DNA of 64,000 nucleotides from Blautia parvula (GTDB lineage: Bacteria > Bacillota > Clostridia > Lachnospirales > Lachnospiraceae). The stretch lies in contig NZ_CP084061.1 in the NCBI RefSeq assembly GCF_020215665.1, positions 1,364,001 to 1,428,000 of the forward strand, written 5' to 3'. The position numbers and the translations under genes are program-made. The notes beneath the pieces were generated by a model. That model made no database searches. It saw only the letters and a list, made by a program, of their open reading frames with translations, and was not told where the DNA came from. This document shows, piece after piece, positions 3,136 to 63,601 of the stretch (position 1 is its first letter; every line of letters begins with the position of its first letter).

Positions 3136-4203
3136 TTAAAACACCTCCCTCTCCATCTTTCCTTCTAATATCTGTACCGCTTTTTCAACAATGTCCATAC
3201 TTCTCGGCACTTTTATTCCTGTCCCGTATGTATATACAGGGTATCGGCACTGCACAGACAGCTTTACATCCTCTGCCATCTGACCGGTAATACTCATCTC
3301 CACTGTCATAAACGCTCTGCAGTTTTCTCCCAAATCAGCAAATGCGTCCACAGGGTACGGAAAAATAGAAATAGGGCGGATGAGACCCAGACGGATTCCC
3401 TGTTTTCTTGCTTTTGAGACAGCTTCCTTACAGACTCTGGCACTGATTCCGTATGCTACTAGAATCAGCTCTGCGTCCTCAGTGAGAATACTCTCCCATC
3501 TCTGCTCATTCTTTTTCATTTCCTCATATTTCTCTCTCAGAAATGTATTGTAATCATCCATATAATAGAAAACATTTGTGATTTTCTTTGATTCCTGCCG
3601 GCCTTTGCATCCTTTTACAGTCCAGTCATCTCTGTCAATATCTACCTCTTCCTGCGGCGGCAGACACACAGGTTCTACCATCTGCCCGATTGCCGCGTCT
3701 GAAAGGATGATAACAGGGTGTCTGTATTTCTCAGCCAGAGGAAATGCCTGCATCATCAGATCCACACTCTCCTGAACAGATGCCGGGGCTAATACCAGAA
3801 GATGGGAATCTCCGTGTCCGTTTCCTCTTGTTACCAGCTTATAATCGCACTGTCCCTGGCTGATTTCTCCGATACCGCTTCCAAATCTGGCTACATCCAC
3901 GATCACAGCCGGAATATCTCCTGCGATCAGATAGGAAAGCCCTTCCTGCATCAGTGAAAAACCGGGGCCGGAAGAAGAAGTCATGGCTCTGGCGCCTGCC
4001 GCTGCTGCTCCTAATACCATATTAATGGCTGCCAGTTCTGATTCGGACTGTATAAAGGTTCCTCCTGCCTCCGGCATCCGCTGGCTTAAATATTCCAGTA
4101 TCTCATTCTGGGGCGTAATGGGATAGCCGCTGTAAAAACGGCACCCGCTGCGGATCATAGCTTCAGCCAGCGCTTCATTTCCCTTCATCAATACCTTTTC
4201 CAT
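3136..4203 (-). CDS. 2-oxoacid:ferredoxin oxidoreductase, alpha subunit (VorB/KorA-like)
   Basis: 355 aa, matching the separate alpha subunit of ketoisovalerate/2-oxoglutarate ferredoxin oxidoreductases. The start MKGNEALAEAMIRSGC and the FYSGYPITPQNEILEYLS motif are characteristic, and SSSGPGFSLMQEGLSYL follows. It binds the oxoacid with the beta chain and passes electrons to the ferredoxin subunit encoded just upstream. The ATG at 4203 is preceded by GAGGAGGGA. The N-terminal layout looks more Vor-like (branched-chain oxoacid) than Por-like, but I would not assign the substrate from this alone. Confidence 0.94.
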   Translation of the reverse strand: MEKVLMKGNEALAEAMIRSGCRFYSGYPITPQNEILEYLSQRMPEAGGTFIQSESELAAINMVLGAAAAGARAMTSSSGPGFSLMQEGLSYLIAGDIPAVIVDVARFGSGIGEISQGQCDYKLVTRGNGHGDSHLLVLAPASVQESVDLMMQAFPLAEKYRHPVIILSDAAIGQMVEPVCLPPQEEVDIDRDDWTVKGCKGRQESKKITNVFYYMDDYNTFLREKYEEMKKNEQRWESILTEDAELILVAYGISARVCKEAVSKARKQGIRLGLIRPISIFPYPVDAFADLGENCRAFMTVEMSITGQMAEDVKLSVQCRYPVYTYGTGIKVPRSMDIVEKAVQILEGKMEREVF

Positions 4204-4224
4204 AGACTTTTGTCCCTCCTCTTC

Positions 4225-4437
4225 TCACTGTACTTTCCCGGAACAGATTTCAAATACATAGTCCGGACATACCGTGTAACATGTGGCACAGGCTACACAC
4301 AGTTCCTGATTGACTTCCACGACTTCATACCCTTTTTTATTTGTTTTTCCAGATCTGCTGACTGCCCCTTTGGGACATTCCTCTATGCATCTTCCGCAGG
4401 CTTTGCAGCGGTGAAGATGAAGTATTACTTTCTCCAT
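4225..4437 (-). CDS. 2-oxoacid:ferredoxin oxidoreductase, delta subunit (2x[4Fe-4S])
   Basis: 70 aa ferredoxin-type protein with two complete Cx2Cx2Cx3CP clusters: C11/C14/C17/C21 and C47/C50/C53/C57. It moves electrons from the TPP site to soluble ferredoxin. It lies 21 bp upstream of the alpha-subunit gene in the same operon and starts behind AGGAGGAAATT. Having delta first, then alpha, beta and gamma, is a common order for Vor/Kor operons. Confidence 0.95.
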   Translation of the reverse strand: MEKVILHLHRCKACGRCIEECPKGAVSRSGKTNKKGYEVVEVNQELCVACATCYTVCPDYVFEICSGKVQ

Positions 4438-13441: not shown

Positions 13442-13490
13442 AAAAAAAGCCGGTCCTATCCAGACAGCTTCTGCCCAGACGGTCGGCTAA
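13442..13490 (-). terminator. Riboswitch expression platform (terminator) before pflB
   Basis: On the minus strand, AGCCG pairs with CGGCT and is followed by T7 (13442-13448), directly after the last conserved part of the ZTP aptamer. A competing 6-bp pair GACCGG/CCGGTC spans the T-run and could serve as an alternative fold. Confidence 0.65.
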
Positions 13491-13541
13491 ATCAACGTTA
13501 TACTCCCTGTGGTTCATTCCACTTCCGCCAGTCATATAACA
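13473..13541 (-). promoter_or_regulatory. ZTP (pfl-motif) riboswitch aptamer
   Basis: Read on the minus strand it matches the known ZTP aptamer in order: TGACTGGCG, a GTGG/CCAC hairpin, CAGGGAG, then after a variable linker CCGTCTGGGCA (13472-13482). ZTP/ZMP accumulates when 10-formyl-tetrahydrofolate is scarce, and this class switches genes on then. Its position before pflB fits, since Pfl supplies formate for one-carbon metabolism and the motif was named for pfl genes. Confidence 0.88.
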
Positions 13542-13546
13542 CTTGT

Positions 13547-16601: not shown

Positions 16602-16628
16602 AAAAAGGGAGACGCCAACACGTCTCCC
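16602..16628 (-). terminator. TPP-riboswitch-controlled terminator
   Basis: Perfect 8-bp stem GGGAGACG/CGTCTCCC with a 6-nt loop, followed on the minus strand by TTTTTG. It lies between the TPP aptamer and thiM, so TPP binding should favour termination. Confidence 0.9.
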
Positions 16629-16640
16629 GGAATCGTCCTT

Positions 16641-16724
16641 CTCTCCCTACGCTGGCATTACCCATATCAGGTTAAAGGGTCGAAGTTGATTACTTCCTCT
16701 CAGCCTGCCGCTACAGGCTCCCCT
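16641..16724 (-). promoter_or_regulatory. TPP riboswitch (THI element)
   Basis: Minus strand shows the conserved CTGAGAGG after the first hairpin, then ACCCTTTAACCTGATATGGG and TAATGCCAGCGTAGGGA, the hallmark TPP aptamer elements in the right order. It controls the thiM operon by transcription termination. Confidence 0.95.
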
Positions 16725-16743
16725 GATGAATTAACTGACTATA

Positions 16744-18608: not shown

Positions 18609-20452
18609 GTGTCATTTTCACTGTATACCCTGAAGGAGCGTTTTCCTGCCCGCTTTGCCTCATACAAGGCCTCATCGGCACGCCGGTACATCTCCTCATA
18701 GGAAAGCTTACTGCCGGTCTGGTAAGATACACCTGCGGACAGAGTCACATTGTACTGCTCCACGCTCTCGTCCTGCAGCGTGTATGTGACAAGCTGCTGC
18801 AGCCGTTTCAGACAGACGCCCTTATCCCTGACATCCTCCAAAAATACCATAAATTCATCTCCGCCGATACGGGCACAGATATCATTTTTCCGGAAAGTGG
18901 ACTGCAGGGCACAGGCTACCTGCAGAAGAATGTTGTCGCCAAAGGGATGCCCGTAGGTGTCATTAAGCATTTTAAATCCGTCCACATCCAGCATGATCAT
19001 CATACAGGAGGTGGTCTGTTCCATACTTTTCAGCCGCCGTTTGATAAGCCGCTCCCCTGACCTGCGGTTGTAAATACCGGTCAGACAGTCCTTTTCCGCT
19101 CCCTGTCGGTAGTAGATCTCCCGCATGGTCTGCTCATGGGTGTCCAGCATTCTGCCGATTTTTCTGTCAAAGCCGCCGTCCTTCCCCTTAAAATGTGCGA
19201 TCTGGCATCTGGTCCACAGGTTATTGCCTTCCCCGTCCACCATGACCACATCCTGCTCTTCCTTGTCAAAGCTCTGTTCCTCCATGGGATAACTGTGCAC
19301 AAAGAGCTTCACCTCTCCCTTTTTCTCACAGTTTTCACACATAAAAGGAATGAAATCCTTCTTCCTGGGCGGTCTTCCGAAGCGCTGCTCAAAGCAGCCA
19401 TAGACATCAATGGTACAGTCTTTGCAGTGTATGTCAAAATCCACATCATTTGCCAGCGTGGTGAGTACCCTCTGCAGATGATCCCTGCGGTTCACCAGCT
19501 TCCGCAGCCTGATTTTTTCTGTAGCGTCCACGAGAAAGACGTAAAAGTAATACTTTCCGTTCTCTTCCTCCACCAGGCGTCCGTAGTCCTCCACCCACAA
19601 AACCGTTCCGTCCTGGCAGCAGATTCTGTATTCCACATAATCGTATGTGTCTGACGCGATCTGCGCCATGATCTCGCTCTCCACCCGTTCCAGATCCCCG
19701 GGATGCACCATTCCCCGGAAGGAACCGCCTGTAAGCGCCTGGAAAGCCTCCATATCCCTGCACCGGAAAAGTTTTAATACGTTCTCATTGACATAGGTGA
19801 TCTTCTCGTCGCCATCAGCCTCATAGATAAAAAAGCCCCCCGGCATACGGGACAGATACTTTTTTGACGGTTCCGGCACTGACGGCGTATCTGGCACAGA
19901 TGGCATTTCCGGCACTGACGGCGTTTCTGACTCAGACGGCTTTTCCGGCACAAACGGCTTTTCCGGCACAAACGGCTTTTCCGGCTGCCATCCCCGGCAT
20001 ACATCGATCCATTCCCGGCTGCCGGCGTATTTTTCCAACTCGCCCGGTGTCAGCTCTATGGCGCTGCTGGCACTTCCGCAGGCCGGAAATACTGTCTTAA
20101 ATCTCTTCAGGGAAATATCTAAAAACACCTGTACATCAGCCGGAATCCCGAAGGGGCATACTCCGCCCACTGCATGTCCTGTCCTTGTTTCCACCTCATC
20201 GGGAGAAAGCATTTTGGCCTTTGTATGAAAATAATCCTTGAACTTTTTGTTGTCCACCCTGGCGTCCCCTGCCATCACCACAAGGACCGTCCTGCCGTCA
20301 ACCAAAAAGGACAGGGTTTTGGCAATGCGTTCCGGTTCGCATCCGGCAGCCTTTGCCGCCAGCTCCACGGTAGCTGAGGACTGGGAAAATTCCATGATCC
20401 GCTCCTCCATGCCAAAACCTCTGAAATACTCCTTTACTTTTTCAATTGCCAT
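18605..20452 (-). CDS. YbaK/ProX-like deacylase domain fused to PAS and GGDEF (diguanylate cyclase)
   Basis: 615 aa with an unusual order of domains. Residues 1-154: a full YbaK/aminoacyl-tRNA deacylase-like domain (KTLSFLVDGRTVLVVMAGD, GGVCPFGIP). Residues 155-196: a Pro-rich repeat linker. About 201-312: a PAS domain (FFIYEADGDEKITYVNEN). About 340-376: a cysteine cluster, C343/C346/C353 and C372/C375. About 455-612: a GGDEF domain with an intact active site GGDEF (530-534) and product-inhibition site RKND (521-524). It should make cyclic di-GMP. The YbaK part normally hydrolyses mischarged tRNA; here it may act as a sensor of uncharged or mischarged tRNA, or only as a ligand domain (inference). 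The frame is continuous and in frame at both joins. No membrane segment. It lies 15 bp after an ArsC/Spx-like gene. Confidence 0.9.
   Translation of the reverse strand: MAIEKVKEYFRGFGMEERIMEFSQSSATVELAAKAAGCEPERIAKTLSFLVDGRTVLVVMAGDARVDNKKFKDYFHTKAKMLSPDEVETRTGHAVGGVCPFGIPADVQVFLDISLKRFKTVFPACGSASSAIELTPGELEKYAGSREWIDVCRGWQPEKPFVPEKPFVPEKPSESETPSVPEMPSVPDTPSVPEPSKKYLSRMPGGFFIYEADGDEKITYVNENVLKLFRCRDMEAFQALTGGSFRGMVHPGDLERVESEIMAQIASDTYDYVEYRICCQDGTVLWVEDYGRLVEEENGKYYFYVFLVDATEKIRLRKLVNRRDHLQRVLTTLANDVDFDIHCKDCTIDVYGCFEQRFGRPPRKKDFIPFMCENCEKKGEVKLFVHSYPMEEQSFDKEEQDVVMVDGEGNNLWTRCQIAHFKGKDGGFDRKIGRMLDTHEQTMREIYYRQGAEKDCLTGIYNRRSGERLIKRRLKSMEQTTSCMMIMLDVDGFKMLNDTYGHPFGDNILLQVACALQSTFRKNDICARIGGDEFMVFLEDVRDKGVCLKRLQQLVTYTLQDESVEQYNVTLSAGVSYQTGSKLSYEEMYRRADEALYEAKRAGKRSFRVYSENDT
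19865..19990 (-). repeat. In-frame 18-bp tandem repeats coding a Pro-rich linker
   Basis: Residues 155-196 are built of six-residue units of the type PEKPFV, then the diverged PSVPEM, PSVPDT, PSVPEP. The underlying DNA repeats about every 18 bp, with two adjacent copies nearly identical (about 19947-19984). The linker length could therefore vary between strains by slippage without breaking the frame. Confidence 0.85.
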
Positions 20453-58962: not shown

Positions 58963-59634
58963 TCAGTCCTGCCTGAGCACTGACAGCAGCTTCCTCATCT
59001 GTCCCAGGCGCTCCTCAAACTGTACATAGAAGTCTCTTCCGCTTTCAAACGGCTGTGTATAAAAAAGATTCAGGACATACATGTTCAGATCTTTCGTGAG
59101 CTGCTCTTCCTCTTTTTCTTCCAGAAGATTCCGGATGTCTTTTAAAAGAAAATGCCATTTGGCAGCAAAATCTTCATAGTTTTTCAAATCCGGCACATCC
59201 AGCCATTTGCTCACTTTTATTTTAGTCTTATTTTTCTTCGGGCATTCCTGATTCTGCAGGTAATAGAAAAAACCTTTTTCCTCATAATATCTCCCCAGGG
59301 GAAATAACCGGCAGAGCCCCGGGCGGAAGGCATGGACCTTACATCTTCCATTTTCATCTAAGAAGGTACACTTTTCTTTTGCTCCTGTCATCCGCAGATT
59401 CGGCAGAATACTGCCCTCTGCCACATGCAGTTCTATGTGGCTGTTCATCAGGTCTTCAAAAGTGAGGCCCAGGTTTGTCTCCAGCCTGTAGACATCAAGG
59501 GGGTCCAGTTTAATGGAGTCCCCCATGCCCCGGCAGCACTCGGAACATCCCTGGCAGCCTCCGCAGTCAGCCTTCACCATATCTCCCGCTTTATATAATT
59601 TCTTTAAGTCCTCTGCAAGAACTTCTCTCTCCAT
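58963..59634 (-). CDS. YkgJ family cysteine-cluster protein
   Basis: 223 aa. The cluster motif is CGGCQGCSECCRGMG (about residues 24-38), followed by KCTFLDENGRCKVHAFRPGLCRLFPLGR, the YkgJ/putative zinc- or iron-chelating domain. A helical C-terminus of about 90 residues follows, longer than in the small family members. Function unknown; related proteins are thought to bind Fe-S or Zn. Single gene with its own terminator. Confidence 0.88.
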   Translation of the reverse strand: MEREVLAEDLKKLYKAGDMVKADCGGCQGCSECCRGMGDSIKLDPLDVYRLETNLGLTFEDLMNSHIELHVAEGSILPNLRMTGAKEKCTFLDENGRCKVHAFRPGLCRLFPLGRYYEEKGFFYYLQNQECPKKNKTKIKVSKWLDVPDLKNYEDFAAKWHFLLKDIRNLLEEKEEEQLTKDLNMYVLNLFYTQPFESGRDFYVQFEERLGQMRKLLSVLRQD

Positions 59635-59675
59635 GTATAAAACCTCTCTGTCTTATGTATTTCTGTTTATGGACT

Positions 59676-60404
59676 TTACAGAATGTGTTTGAAAATTTCT
59701 TTGGCCGGCTGTACGTCACACTCTGTGGGAGATTTTCCCCCATAAGCCAAAAGTCGGGAAATCCCTCTTACCACGCGTCCCTCCGGATCATCAAAATGAC
59801 CGCCCGGATTACTCTCACAGATAACCGGACAAAATTTCCCCCAGTGGGCAGCCAGACGTTCTGTGCACACTTTTACGGAAGCCATTCTCACATTGCGGAC
59901 TTTATGCTCCCTGCTGCCAAGAGATATATAGATCAATGGATTTTCGGCTTTCATACTGTGGGACATGGCATAATCTGCCCAGCCGTCAAACCAGAGGGAA
60001 CCGGACATGGTGCCGATTCTGTTGAACTTGTCCGAATGGTACATGGCATACACGGCGAATAATCCGGCCATGGAATATCCCACGATTCCCCTGTCCTTCA
60101 CTTCAAATGAAAGATTCTGTTCCGCCCGGGGAAGAAGCTCCTGCTCAAAATACCGCAGATATTCCCCGGCTCCGCCTGTAAAATCCGTGCTCTTTGCAAA
60201 AGCCTTCTCTGCCTTCCAGGGAGAAAAATCACCGTTCCAGTCTCTTCCCGAAACGCCCGCAAGGACACACGGCCTCGTGATCTGCTGCCATATCTTCTCC
60301 CCTTCCTCCCGGGAAAAAATGTGGCACCAGATAACAGGAACCGGTTCTTTTATCTCCTCTCCCCAAAGGTAGATTTCACATTTCTCTTCTTTAAAACTTT
60401 TCAT
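59676..60404 (-). CDS. alpha/beta hydrolase, esterase-like
   Basis: 242 aa. The nucleophile is in VGYSMAGLFAVYAMY (Ser near residue 112) and a likely His in NPGGHFDD (about 206). IYISLGSREHKVRN and TMSGSLWFDGW resemble the Fes/IroE/esterase-D branch of alpha/beta hydrolases that includes siderophore esterases. No siderophore or iron transport genes are close, so the substrate is open. No signal peptide. It is followed by nothing on its strand and preceded by the long non-coding stretch. Confidence 0.82.
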   Translation of the reverse strand: MKSFKEEKCEIYLWGEEIKEPVPVIWCHIFSREEGEKIWQQITRPCVLAGVSGRDWNGDFSPWKAEKAFAKSTDFTGGAGEYLRYFEQELLPRAEQNLSFEVKDRGIVGYSMAGLFAVYAMYHSDKFNRIGTMSGSLWFDGWADYAMSHSMKAENPLIYISLGSREHKVRNVRMASVKVCTERLAAHWGKFCPVICESNPGGHFDDPEGRVVRGISRLLAYGGKSPTECDVQPAKEIFKHIL

Positions 60405-60669
60405 GGCAGCAATAAGACCTTTCTGTGTGCAGTCAGTATTTTTACTGGTGTTGCCGCTGATTTATACAAGTTCAGCACGGTAAATGTACAGATACGGCTG
60501 AACGGTTAGCAATTTATTTTCTTCTTTTTTATTATAAGGGACGGGGTAGAAAACCGCAATGTTTTTATTCGCAGGGACGGGAAAATGGGGACGGGAAAAT
60601 GGCCGTAGGCGGGGCTGCATGATAGCATGACATGGGAGGGGCAGCTGCGAGGGATGACTCTGATCTTCC
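60405..60669. other. Start of the 1.2-kb gap, with a 14-bp tandem duplication
   Basis: No credible gene. It holds the esterase promoter region and two adjacent copies of GGACGGGAAAATGG (60575-60588 and 60589-60602) in a G-rich segment. Nothing else stands out before the array. Confidence 0.6.
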
Positions 60670-61452
60670 TTGCTCTATAGACAAATTGAAAGAAATCTAA
60701 ATCTCTTATTTTCGTAGATAGTCTTAAGCGCCTGGCAGCAAGTTCTCCCCACTTTACGGCTAATTTTAGAGAAATCTCTGGTTTTCGTAGGTGATTTTAG
60801 GGCATCTGACAATACTTTCTTCTTGTTTTACAGATAATTTATTTTTATAGGTAATCTTAGGACTCCTGGCAATAGTTTCCGCCTGTTTTACAGATAATTT
60901 GAAGGATATCTTTAGCTTTCGTAGGTAATCTTAGGGCGCCCGACAATGATTTCTTCTTATTTTGCAGATAATTCATTAAAAAGCTTTAGTTTTTATAGGT
61001 AATCTTAGGACTCCTGGCAATGGTTTCTGTCTGTTTTACAAATAATTTGAAGGATATCTTTAGCTTTCGTAGGTAATCTTAGGGCGCCCGACAATGATTT
61101 CTTCTTGTTCTGCAGATAATTCATTAAAAAGCTTTAGTTTTTATAGGTAATCTTAGGACTCCTGGCAATGGTTTCCGCCTGTTTTACAGATAATTCGAAG
61201 GATGTCTTTAGCTTTCGTGGGTAATCTTAGGGCGCCCGACAATGATTTCTTCTTGTTCTGCAGATAATTCATTAAAAAACTTTAGTTTTTATAGGTAATC
61301 TTCAAGAACCAGACCATGTCTTCTGCTTGTTTTACAGATAATTTGAAAGACAGCCATATAATCTATAGGTAAATCCGGAAATTCGACATGTGTCCTTACT
61401 TTCCAGGTAATTCAGAACTCTGATATCTAACAGATGATGTGCGATGGGTAAT
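60670..61452 (+). repeat. 74-bp tandem array with helically spaced AGRTAAT cores
   Basis: Five regular units start at 60911, 60985, 61059, 61133 and 61207, each exactly 74 bp, with degenerate units on both sides (a shortened one about 60775-60836, and 60837, 61281, about 61355). Types A and B alternate, giving a 148-bp higher period. A and B (61059 versus 61133) agree at 53 of 74 bases, while A versus A (61059 versus 61207) differ at 2. Every unit has two AGRTAAT cores, 43 then 31 bp apart. A small palindrome occupies the same place in each: GGGCGCCC in A, AGGACTCCT in B. Not coding: 74 is not a multiple of 3 and stop codons recur. Confidence 0.9.
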
Positions 61453-61526
61453 ATATAAATACAACAAGGGTATTTATAAAGTGAGACAGCAATGACCCGG
61501 TATGGCGTATGGAATCTATATATAGC

Positions 61527-61554
61527 TTGCAGGCTGCAGGAAATGTAGTATAAT
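61527..61554 (+). promoter_or_regulatory. Promoter of the gene at 61624
   Basis: TTGCAG (61527-61532), 16-bp spacer, TATAAT (61549-61554), about 80 bp after the last array motif and 64 bp before GGGAGG. Confidence 0.7.
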
Positions 61555-61623
61555 AGTGTCTGGCTGTCCGGATGATCTCCATGCCGGACTGTATCATAAA
61601 ACTGCACGGGAGGTCTTGTGAAA

Positions 61624-62166
61624 ATGAATCTGATATTCCGGAAAAATTTTAAAAATGCAGTGGAACGTGTGCTTCATGTTCCCCATAACTATACAGGCGG
61701 TATTCTGGAAATGACCTTTGTGTTGGATTATGCGCTTTCCAAAGAATGTGCCGTATCCATGACAAAAGAGATTGCCGCTGTGCTCCGCTCTCACAGCCAG
61801 GTCTTCCAGAATGTCCGGCTCAACCTTCTGCACTGGAAGGAGAACGAGGTGCTTGTAAACCAGGTGGTGCCAATTTCCATGCTGCAGCTTGGGAGAGGGT
61901 TGGAAAACTATGAATCCCTGCCCGGAAATAAATCCCTGGACACCCTTACAGATACCCTGAAACGCTTCCACGCCAGGTCTAAGCTGGTAATCTGCCTGCT
62001 CGGTACAGGATCTGCCGCAGGCGCGGTGGTGCTGGATGAGGAGAGGACAAAAAAGAATCTGCAGCCATTTCTTGGGCGGAAGAGTATATTCTTATGTGTG
62101 CAGGAGGACGGGGAATGCGTTAGTCCGGAGATTGTGATGGGGGCTGAAATACTTTCCAAAATATAA
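61624..62166 (+). CDS. unknown protein, possible VWA-like fold
   Basis: 180 aa, family not recognised. It begins MNLIFRKNFKNAVERVLHVPHNY. A pattern of buried strands (MTFVLDYALSKE, VRLNLLHWKEN, KLVICLLGTGSAAGAVVL, RKSIFLCVQEDGE) with helices between fits a von Willebrand A-like alpha/beta fold, but the metal-site DxSxS motif is absent (DYALS stands in its place). Soluble, no signal peptide. The ATG at 61624 is 10 nt after GGGAGG; a GTG at 61618 is only 4 nt away. It has its own promoter and terminator and lies directly behind the 74-bp array. Confidence 0.72.
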   Translation: MNLIFRKNFKNAVERVLHVPHNYTGGILEMTFVLDYALSKECAVSMTKEIAAVLRSHSQVFQNVRLNLLHWKENEVLVNQVVPISMLQLGRGLENYESLPGNKSLDTLTDTLKRFHARSKLVICLLGTGSAAGAVVLDEERTKKNLQPFLGRKSIFLCVQEDGECVSPEIVMGAEILSKI

Positions 62167-62173
62167 GGACACA

Positions 62174-62236
62174 AAAAACGGAGACTGCATTGCCGGGGAA
62201 TATATCCATATTCCCCGGCAGCATAGTCTCCTTTTT
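62174..62236. terminator. Long hairpin terminator
   Basis: Arms of about 24 bp (GGAGACT with AGTCTCC, inner GCCGGGGAATAT with ATATTCCCCGGC), followed by TTTTTCC on the plus strand and preceded by A6, so it ends transcription from both convergent genes. Confidence 0.93.
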
Positions 62237-62245
62237 CCGTTTTCC

Positions 62246-63601
62246 TTATCCCTTTGCCAGATTCAGCAGAGATTCCTTTAACTCCGGCACTGCCGCCTTC
62301 ACAATTCCTCTTATCCGCTCAAAAGCCTCCGCATCTGCCGCCTCAATCCGGTACGTCATGGCCTGTTCCGTTACAGATTTTCTGAGCAGGAACCAGCCGT
62401 CTGCAAATTCAATACGCACACCGTCCATTCTGCTCACAGGATAGCATTCTCCCATCTCTGCCGCCTTATCCAGCCATTTTTCCTGTTCCTCATAGGGGCA
62501 GAAGACCCTCAGATCCGGTGTGATGATGGAATCCGGAAACTCTTCTGCCATCTCTGCCAGGCTCCTGCCTTCCTCCTCCAGGATTTCGCACATTTTCAGT
62601 GTTGCGTAAAGGCCGTCATCTCTGCCGATTTCCCGGAAGAAAAAATGTCCGCTGATCTCCCCTGCTGCCAGTGCCCGTTCCTTTAAAAAACGCTGCTTGA
62701 TGAATCCGTATCCGCTCCGCTCCATAACAGGCATCCCACCGTAAGCCAATATGGTATTCTTCACCAGGGAGGCGCTTTTCTGATCATATACAAATGAACC
62801 CGGGCCTCCTTTCAAATACTGACGGATAAAAACGGCAAAGCTTTTCTCACTGGTCAGATAATGCCCCCTGTTGTCAATAAAGACAACTCTGTCCCCGTCT
62901 CCGTCATAAGCGGCTCCCAAATCTGCCCCTGTTTCCAGAACTTTCTTACAGACATCTGCAAGGCAGTTATACTCTGCAGGATTGGGGTTCCTGTTCGGAA
63001 AATTTCCGTCGTATCCGCAGTAAAGCCGGCTCACCTCATACCCCATTGTTTCCATGATCTGTGGTACAATTTTACTGGTGGCGCCATCACAGCAGTCCAG
63101 GACTATCTTCAGACTTCCCTTTCTGCAGTTTCTTTCTATGAAAGCCGCGTAGTTTTTCTCCACATTTCTTGTTTCATATGAGCCGTTCCCTGTTAAGAAG
63201 TCTCTCAGGTGCACCAGATTCTCCACCTTTTTGATTTCTTCCGACGTCACCGGGAAATTCCCGAACATCATTTTAAATCCATTATACCGTGCCGGGTTAT
63301 GGGATGCTGTGACCATGATTCCTCCCTGCGGCGCTTCGGTTCCAAATTCCGCTGCGTCCAGAGCGTAATAAAACATAGGTGTGGTCACACAGCCTACATC
63401 TATCACATGGATGCCCGTTTCCATCAGTCCCCGCATAAGAGAGGCCTTCAAAACCGGTGTTGACAGGCGGATATCCCCTCCCACCGCCAGCCGCTTTCCC
63501 CTCTGCAGGGTCCCGACTGCTTTGCCGATGAGGTAAGCATCCTTTTCATCAAATTCCTCTCCGTATATCCCCCGTATATCGCAGTCTTTATAAATACTCA
63601 T
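62246..63601 (-). CDS. phosphoglucomutase/phosphomannomutase
   Basis: 451 aa. It shifts phosphate between C1 and C6 of hexose phosphates. The phospho-serine is S100 in MVTASHNPARYNG, the Mg site is DGDGDR (233-238), the sugar-binding loop AAGEISGHFFF, and the phosphate-binding loop MDGVRIEFADGWFLLRKS near the C-terminus. The length and order match the ManB/AlgC-type family rather than PGM of the larger type. It starts 18 bp after the stop of the kinase gene, so the two may be an operon. Confidence 0.94.
   Translation of the reverse strand: MSIYKDCDIRGIYGEEFDEKDAYLIGKAVGTLQRGKRLAVGGDIRLSTPVLKASLMRGLMETGIHVIDVGCVTTPMFYYALDAAEFGTEAPQGGIMVTASHNPARYNGFKMMFGNFPVTSEEIKKVENLVHLRDFLTGNGSYETRNVEKNYAAFIERNCRKGSLKIVLDCCDGATSKIVPQIMETMGYEVSRLYCGYDGNFPNRNPNPAEYNCLADVCKKVLETGADLGAAYDGDGDRVVFIDNRGHYLTSEKSFAVFIRQYLKGGPGSFVYDQKSASLVKNTILAYGGMPVMERSGYGFIKQRFLKERALAAGEISGHFFFREIGRDDGLYATLKMCEILEEEGRSLAEMAEEFPDSIITPDLRVFCPYEEQEKWLDKAAEMGECYPVSRMDGVRIEFADGWFLLRKSVTEQAMTYRIEAADAEAFERIRGIVKAAVPELKESLLNLAKG

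What the first reader, a model, noticed from the sequence alone, without database searches (positions are those of the whole stretch)
60670..61452. Tandem 74-bp array with motif spacing of 31 and 43 bp, i.e. about 3 and 4 helical turns
Seen: the core AGRTAAT (or one-base variants) occurs at 60716, 60758, 60789, 60832, 60849, 60892, 60923, 60966, 60997, 61040, 61071, 61114, 61145, 61188, 61219, 61262, 61293, 61336, 61367, 61405 and 61446. From 60849 to 61367 the gaps alternate 43, 31, 43, 31 without exception (sum 74). One full unit is about 7 turns of B-DNA, so all cores face the same side. Alternating A and B units differ at 21 of 74 positions, yet each keeps a palindrome at the same offset (GGGCGCCC or AGGACTCCT). 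Cores are kept while intervening bases drift, which suggests selection on the cores. Inference: a cooperative protein-binding array, an RNA with repeated hairpins, or a partition or anchoring site. It lies upstream of the promoter (61527-61554) of an unknown gene.
Basis: partly seen in the sequence, partly recalled or inferred. Interest (0 to 1): 0.78.

Follow-up and report, generated by a model that had tools for sequence, protein, structure and literature searches.

The report
Helically phased inverted-site arrays, scattered genome-wide
The array is one of about fourteen tandem DNA arrays scattered between genes of this bacterium, in which short inverted sites stay about 3 and 4 turns of the DNA helix apart while the DNA between them drifts; a few other bacteria carry the same design, but which protein (if any) binds it is unknown.

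Summary
The array is real: 15 cores alternate 43/31 bp without a break (0 of 2000 shuffles). It is not a lone site. The same genome (G000) holds 13 more arrays (one weak) at unrelated intergenic places, with the same two half-sites 31 bp apart and a 74-bp period, while the rest has diverged. Relatives show the half-sites to be inverted, not direct: TTACATATA-N23-TATATGTAA, 41 bp + 33 bp = 74. A rabbit Lachnospiraceae MAG has about 220 such elements, a Eubacterium MAG about 20. In the MAG the arrays sit in MITE/BOX-like elements with terminal inverted repeats and a hairpin. At 6 of 6 testable places the close relative G008 lacks the array. Best reading: a dispersed, probably mobile intergenic repeat whose unit is a phased pair of inverted protein-binding half-sites. 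The geometry is shown; the protein, the function and mobility in G000 are inferred. RNA hairpins, or a role tied to the next gene, fit poorly. New variant of a known kind (modular interspersed repeats).

The parts
60571..61524 (.). Segment present in G000 and missing at the same intergenic place in two relatives (954 bp between aligned flanks, 16 bp in G008; with slightly different flank ends 970 bp against 42 bp in G009)
   Evidence: blastn of window 59001-63000 against L212/L213; junctions
60700..60885 (+). Degenerate first part of the array, with one shortened unit (gap 10 instead of 24 between half-sites at 60830-60854)
60838..61347 (+). Regular array, 74-bp units in two alternating types (148-bp super-period)
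   Evidence: TRF (period 148, 3.5 copies, 92% matches; period 74, 6.8 copies, 72% matches)
60887..60897 (+). Half-site A (TTTACAGATAA); variants of it at +74, +148, +222, +296, +370, +444
60921..60929 (+). Half-site B (GTAGGTAAT, inverted relative to A), 31 bp after A; variants every 74 bp
61330..61380 (+). Last unit, with the ending TCTATAGGTAAATC; similar endings at 1.913 Mb (TCTATATGTAAATC) and 1.937 Mb (TCCATACGTAAATC), less so in others
61527..61554 (+). Sigma-A-like promoter (TTGCAG / TATAAT, by eye) of the next gene; the TATAAT part is conserved in G008 and G009, which lack the array
61618..62166 (+). 182-aa ORF of unknown function downstream (no Pfam family above its cut-off)

Best explanation
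The array belongs to a dispersed family of intergenic repeats. Its 74-bp unit consists of two inverted half-sites of a sequence-specific DNA-binding protein: TTAC-type arms at the ends of a 41-bp element, then a 33-bp filler. Half-sites then alternate about 3 and 4 helical turns apart, all on one face of the helix, so that protein bound along the array could touch, bridge or wrap the DNA into a defined nucleoprotein rod. Such arrays spread between intergenic sites as MITE/BOX-like elements (supported by their structure in one relative, inferred for G000) and grow or shrink by tandem duplication. Shown: the geometry, its conservation against drifting filler, dispersal, rarity in the samples, absence at orthologous sites of a close relative. 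Inferred: that a protein binds, that the phasing serves cooperative binding, and any effect (architectural, insulating or regulatory) on nearby genes.
For: Dispersal: BLAST with the window array finds six more arrays below E=1e-3 in its genome; the core pattern finds further ones, 38+9 matches against 2+1 for the reversed control. Spacing not fixed beforehand: with the A-to-B gap free from 9 to 39, 22 of 30 matches in G000 have gap 24; of the other 8, four lie in arrays and four elsewhere. Sites picked only by their half-sites are 74 bp apart in 37 of 41 intervals in 10 loci (others 134, 102, 73, 147). Conservation: in 39 plain BLAST pieces between the window array and six other arrays, half-site columns agree in 2030 of 2456 (83%) and the rest in 3430 of 5228 (66%); the contrast is lost when the phase is slid, except by 2 bases. 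Relatives: with the gap free from 8 to 38, 44 of the 50 listed (of 148) exact G438 elements are 41 bp long, 4 are 40 and 2 are 42; all 11 of G439: 7, 3 and 1. In fetched G438 loci arms are 41 bp apart in 145 of 163 pairs of 40-43 bp, the gap to the next is 33 in 130 of 140 below 60 bp. Geometry kept while arms change: in G439 (L124) four TTACATATA elements are followed by four TTACACGYA elements, 40-41 bp long and 75, 75 and 73 bp apart, which no search pattern had selected. L091 has two ATACCGACTAAA elements 74 bp apart, likewise not selected.
Against: No binding protein is known or even suspected by name. The arms are inverted repeats in the relatives, so hairpins in DNA or RNA remain possible there (mean z -1.6/-2.5 in 25 of 87 G438 units). 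The orientation relative to genes differs between G000 and G438, so no common regulatory logic is visible. Part of the spacing evidence is ascertained: several arrays and the relatives were found with fixed-spacing patterns. In G439 the gap to the next element is 33 in only 10 of 18 and 34 in 5. G336 keeps the period but has arms only 31 bp apart. Conserved half-sites would also follow if they served only the element's own mobility. No terminal inverted repeats or target duplications were seen in G000.
Confidence: 0.5

Rival explanations
1. A selfish MITE/BOX-like minisatellite without a host function. The half-sites are needed only for mobilisation (for instance transposase binding) or are what is left of a common ancestor, and tandem growth is slippage or unequal recombination.
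For: G438 elements have 16-bp terminal inverted repeats: perfect at both ends in L145/L162; at least 12 of 16 letters at the 5' end in 17 of 39 rows and at the 3' end in 10 of 39, against 2% in shuffled flanks. A 5' hairpin and fixed first and last modules surround a variable number of units. They lie mostly 3' of genes, and only 1 of 30 with both neighbours lies between divergent genes, as tolerated insertions do. Arrays are missing at 6 of 6 testable orthologous sites in G008.
Against: Internal units, far from the ends, keep half-sites and spacing although units of some arrays share only 41-54% of all positions; mobilisation alone does not obviously require that. No transposase copy with these ends was noticed in what I fetched, but I made no dedicated search for one.
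Confidence: 0.3
2. The arrays act as transcribed RNA with repeated hairpins.
For: Arms are inverted repeats in the relatives; 25 G438 units fold somewhat more stably than shuffles (mean z -1.6 and -2.5 on the two strands).
Against: In G000 the arms are no longer complementary much beyond TTAC/GTAA, and mean z values of the A-B element (up to 5 units each, 13 arrays) run from -2.4 to +0.8. Exact 41/33 spacing is a demand of duplex DNA rather than of RNA hairpins. No Rfam family at gathering score in the window array or in 8 related loci.
Confidence: 0.1
3. A cis-regulatory array for the downstream 182-aa gene, or a partition/anchoring site of this chromosome.
For: Position upstream of a promoter; the architecture recalls the F-plasmid centromere (twelve 43-bp repeats each with an inverted repeat; passages of PMC9178275).
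Against: G008 and G009 keep gene and promoter without the array; about 14 loci in G000 and dozens in G438, with unrelated neighbours.
Confidence: 0.07

Closest known systems
Pneumococcal BOX elements (boxA-boxB(n)-boxC); passages of PMC3049150 seen
   Same: Interspersed repeat with fixed end modules and a variable number of tandem internal modules; suspected MITE origin; enriched between convergent genes. G438 elements match this plan.
   Different: BOX is described through RNA secondary structure; here the unit is a 41+33 bp pair of inverted half-sites with fixed helical spacing, and in G000 no end modules were found. No sequence comparison with BOX was made.
BrickBuilt and MITE464/PgRS of Porphyromonas gingivalis; passages of PMC4596501 seen
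   Same: A minisatellite inside a MITE with leader, tail and terminal inverted repeats; 19 BrickBuilt copies in strain ATCC 33277; intergenic.
   Different: Direct repeats of 23 nt (41 nt in MITE464/PgRS); nothing in the passages seen about paired inverted half-sites with alternating spacing.
parS/sopC centromere of the F plasmid; passages of PMC9178275 seen
   Same: Tandem repeats (12 x 43 bp) each carrying an inverted repeat bound by a protein dimer.
   Different: A single site beside its partition genes and a compact 16-bp inverted repeat; here many arrays, no cognate gene seen beside them, arms 23 bp apart.
BIME/REP arrays (recalled, not tested)
   Same: Alternating inverted elements with two spacer lengths.
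   Different: REP elements are hairpins tied to a RAYT transposase (recalled); neither was looked for here beyond folding.

Membership tests
MITE (as defined in the passages of PMC4596501 and PMC3049150) | Terminal inverted repeats | tested here: met
   G438 only: GGGACTGTAAAAAAGT, 16 of 16 letters at both ends in L162; at least 12 of 16 at either end in 22 of 39 rows, at both ends in 5 (shuffled flanks about 2% per end). Not found in G000.
MITE | Target site duplication | tested here: inconclusive
   By eye no consistent duplication at the few G438 elements with both ends nor at G000 junctions.
MITE | Many short copies without a transposase gene inside | tested here: met
   34 arrays of 3 or more units among the fetched G438 loci; the intact element of L145 is 502 bp.
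BOX element | Fixed 5' and 3' modules around tandem middle modules | tested here: met
   As an architecture in G438; in G000 only a similar last unit in some arrays.
BOX element | Sequence homology to boxA/B/C | not tested
   No BOX sequence was aligned; named only as 'works like'.
Plasmid-type centromere (sopC) | Cognate partition genes adjacent | tested here: inconclusive
   No ParA/ParB noticed by eye among flanking ORFs; only four window ORFs were scanned against Pfam.
CRISPR array | Near-identical repeats separated by unrelated spacers | tested here: not met
   All parts of the unit are related between neighbouring units of an array, and no part is constant over a repeat length.
Structured RNA (Rfam) | Match to a curated family | tested here: not met
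   No match at gathering score in the window array or in 8 related loci.

The most novel reading that the evidence does not exclude
Lachnospiraceae and some relatives carry an unrecognised chromosome-architecture system: a dedicated DNA-binding protein family reads TTAC-type inverted half-sites set 3 and 4 helical turns apart, in mobile 74-bp arrays that seed defined nucleoprotein rods (anchors, insulators or bridging points) at dozens of intergenic places, with arm sequence and protein coevolving from lineage to lineage while the geometry stays.
Probability: 0.22. Interest if true: 0.88.

Novelty: new variant of a known kind. Interest (0 to 1): 0.6.

Why it matters
If half-sites on one face of the helix at 3 and 4 turns are selected in dozens of loci, there should be a protein that reads them, and the arrays are ready-made baits to find it. 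It would show that modular interspersed repeats of the BOX/MITE type can carry precise DNA architecture and not only hairpins, and it gives a testable case of how a genome gains many new binding arrays within the divergence of two close species.

Tried and rejected
RNA families: Rfam at gathering score over the window and 8 related loci gave nothing in the arrays. Viral origin: of four viral-contig scans three found nothing and one gave two contigs, each with a single inverted repeat. Plasmids: no match for the window array; the G438 element gave one 40-base match inside a gene. Origin of replication: the 4.736-Mb array lies near DnaA-box-like sites, but by eye no dnaA-like gene is among the ORFs around it, so I dropped the idea; polarity with replication was therefore not pursued. 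Dedicated neighbour gene: none recurrent by eye. Role for the 182-aa gene: two relatives lack the array. L094 (Moraxellaceae) looked like a chance match without further repeats. A 60-bp short unit and the first, degenerate units of the window array break the rule. Literature: (full-text searches, listings only) showed no description of such arrays; the library holds open-licence papers only, so this is no proof of absence.

Ascertainment: arrays at 2.90, 3.14, 3.22, 4.84, 5.15, 5.54 and 6.03 Mb were found or made convincing with a pattern of fixed half-site spacing. Units used for (half-site columns 89% against 58% identical between 7 arrays; 63 of 242 against 385 of 572 variable columns within 11) were picked by a half-site score and chained at 73-75 bp, which favours the half-sites; so does the count of 42 of 44 intervals. 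I rely instead. G336 was found with a fixed 74-bp pattern. Dropped before counts: G438 rows with fewer than 3 units, arrays with fewer than 3 chained units, the 6.03-Mb array.

Full report
OBSERVATION. The sequence at 60670-61452 is as described. Twenty of 21 listed cores match AGRTAAT with at most one mismatch, one (60758) has two. Fifteen cores from 60849 to 61367 alternate 43 and 31 bp; in 2000 mononucleotide shuffles the longest chain is 2, as it is elsewhere in the window. TRF calls periods 74 and 148. Neighbouring units differ at 20-26 positions.

THE SAME GENOME. The window lies in a 6.25-Mb single-contig genome (G000). A BLAST of the array finds other places below E=1e-3 at 1.913, 1.937, 4.554, 4.621, 4.736 and 5.487 Mb. 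The core pattern ACAGATAA-N24-TANGTAA with up to one mismatch gives 38+9 matches, the reversed control 2+1. It adds 2.90, 3.14, 3.22, 4.84, 5.15, 5.54 and a weak array at 6.03 Mb: 14 loci with the window's. Sites picked only by their half-sites are 74 bp apart in 37 of 41 intervals in 10 loci; the others are 134, 102, 73 and 147. The flanks are unrelated apart from a short repeat module beside a few. The arrays lie mainly between genes, often upstream of gene starts. By my own reading of unannotated ORFs, 6 of 7 in tandem gene contexts have one orientation (p=0.125, not significant).

SPACING AND CONSERVATION. To avoid choosing the spacing beforehand I let the A-to-B gap run from 9 to 39: 22 of 30 matches have gap 24. 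Of the other eight, four are in arrays (two because the true B site has a mismatch, one 1-bp deletion, one short unit in the window) and four elsewhere. In 39 plain BLAST pieces between the window array and the six BLAST-found arrays, half-site columns agree in 2030 of 2456 (83%) and the others in 3430 of 5228 (66%). This holds in each of the six loci (79-90% against 60-69%) and vanishes when the phase is slid in steps of 6, apart from the slide by 72, i.e. by -2. Earlier figures from units picked by a half-site score (89% against 58% between 7 arrays; 82% and 75% for A and B against 48% and 39% over 13 arrays; 63 of 242 against 385 of 572 variable columns within 11 arrays) point the same way but are biased towards half-sites. 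Some arrays are internally diverged: the units of the 5.487- and 1.913-Mb arrays are on average 41% and 53% identical.

RELATIVES WITH ARRAYS. One scan of genome contigs with a two-unit, fixed-spacing pattern gave seven loci: three contigs of one rabbit Lachnospiraceae MAG (Lapin-012 bin37; G438), one of a Eubacterium MAG (G439), one of a Clostridiales MAG, Butyrivibrio sp. Su6, and a Moraxellaceae contig that looks like chance. In the two MAGs the half-sites are clearly inverted: TTACATATA-N23-TATATGTAA. G438 has 219+217 matches with up to one mismatch (control 1+2), G439 20+19 (control 1+0); the two strands largely show the same elements, so about 220 and 20. With the gap free from 8 to 38, exact matches are 148+148 (control 0+0) and 11+11 (control 1+1); of the 50 elements listed for G438, 44 are 41 bp, 4 are 40 and 2 are 42; of all 11 in G439, 7, 3 and 1. 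In fetched G438 loci arm pairs of 40-43 bp have lengths 40:12, 41:145, 42:5, 43:1, and the gap to the next element is 33 in 130 of 140 pairs below 60 bp. In fetched G439 loci lengths are 40:3, 41:21, 42:1 and gaps 23:2, 33:10, 34:5, 63:1. One G439 locus (L124) has four TTACATATA elements followed by four TTACACGYA elements, 40-41 bp long and 75, 75 and 73 bp apart; no pattern of mine selected the second set. The Clostridiales contig has, besides the TTACAGATAA array, two ATACCGACTAAA elements 74 bp apart. The Butyrivibrio array has TACGGATAA arms at intervals of 75, 75, 75 and 74. A further family member, G336, has two arrays with TTACTTT arms at intervals of 74, 74, 73, 73 and 74, 74, 74, found by a fixed-period pattern; its arms lie closer together (31 bp), so it fits the period but not the 41/33 division.

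DISTRIBUTION. In the genus only G000 of 20 genomes has arrays of this core; the others show 0-4 matches, their controls 0-5. In overlapping samples of the family 1 of 397 with one pattern and 2 of 299 with a looser one, in the class 2 of 291, G000 and G657. These counts are for TTAC-type or TACNNATA arms; arrays with other arms would be missed.

ELEMENT STRUCTURE. In G438 most arrays have a fixed beginning and end: a 5' terminal repeat GGGACTGTAAAAAAGT, a terminator-like hairpin, a conserved first unit, n units, a last lone half-site, and the inverted terminal repeat. L145/L162 has both ends perfect. Of 39 rows, 17 have at least 12 of 16 letters at the 5' end, 10 at the 3' end, 22 at either and 5 at both; shuffled flanks reach that in about 2% per end. 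Among 34 arrays of at least three units, 29 have the left gene reading towards the hairpin (+|+ 14, +|- 11, +|. 4, -|- 4, -|+ 1; ORF-based; +|+ against -|- p=0.03). This is the plan of BOX elements and BrickBuilt MITEs (passages of PMC3049150 and PMC4596501). G000 shows no such ends.

GAIN OR LOSS. The gene after the window array has orthologues in G008 and G009 (82% and 78% identity); with G000 itself 3 of 20 genus genomes have it. Both keep the neighbours and the promoter, but between aligned flanks G000 has 954 bp and G008 16 bp (G009: 970 against 42). At five more places where both flanks align, G000 has 488, 951, 735, 786 and 828 bp and G008 160, 23, 33, 107 and 601 bp; the last holds an unrelated 148-bp tandem repeat. 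So 6 of 6 testable loci lack the array in G008. The loci at 4.74, 5.49 and 5.54 Mb aligned on one side or in part only, and the other five were not found in the 800 kb that I fetched. Gains in G000 are the simpler reading; losses in G008 are possible. Filler of different arrays is less alike (66% in the BLAST pieces, which are chosen for likeness) than the flanks are between species (about 77-91%), so the arrays were probably already diverged when they reached these places (inference).

MECHANISM. Distances of 31-32 and 42-43 bp are close to 3 and 4 turns of B-DNA, and 74 bp to 7 turns; all half-sites then lie on one face (geometry, no experiment). RNA hairpins do not explain G000: mean folding z of the A-B element in 13 arrays (up to 5 units each, both strands) lies between -2.4 and +0.8. 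I therefore favour duplex DNA bound by a protein with inverted, dimer-like recognition. Which protein, and what for, is open. A purely selfish element remains the main rival.

LIMITS. Gene contexts rest on ORFs, mostly without annotation. That G000 belongs to the family of Butyrivibrio follows from G657, labelled same family, carrying the array seen in strain Su6; that this family is Lachnospiraceae is recalled.

Noticed in passing
L244-L253 taken together, about G008:C1:5795094-5795502: At the place of the G000 4.62-Mb array the relative G008 has a different tandem repeat of period 148 (2 x 74) with GTTACTAT...ATAGTAAC inverted repeats; coincidence, or another form of the same theme.
   Followed up: partly
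L024, about 4087-4307: A nearly palindromic, GC-rich sequence of about 220 bp lies close behind the 1.937-Mb array, inside the stretch that G008 lacks.
   Followed up: no
L108 (G000 6.026-6.033 Mb), both sides of the weak array: Two related inverted-repeat sequences of about 190 bp flank the degenerate array at 6.03 Mb (82% identical to each other over 203 columns).
   Followed up: no
window 16627-16734 and 13466-13545, minus strand: TPP riboswitch and ZMP/ZTP riboswitch by Rfam.
   Followed up: no
window 19871-19985: 18/36-bp tandem repeat; the period is a multiple of 3, so it may be coding.
   Followed up: no
L106, L024, L023, L022 (G000): Another dispersed intergenic module (CATTCTGCTCCATACC... 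/ ...TTTTCATGCCTTCGGCCTGAAAA) recurs near some of the arrays.
   Followed up: partly
L198 (G336, reverse strand), units at 1352-1680: Units contain AATGATGAG and CTGA, which resemble box C and box D motifs (recalled); not tested.
   Followed up: no
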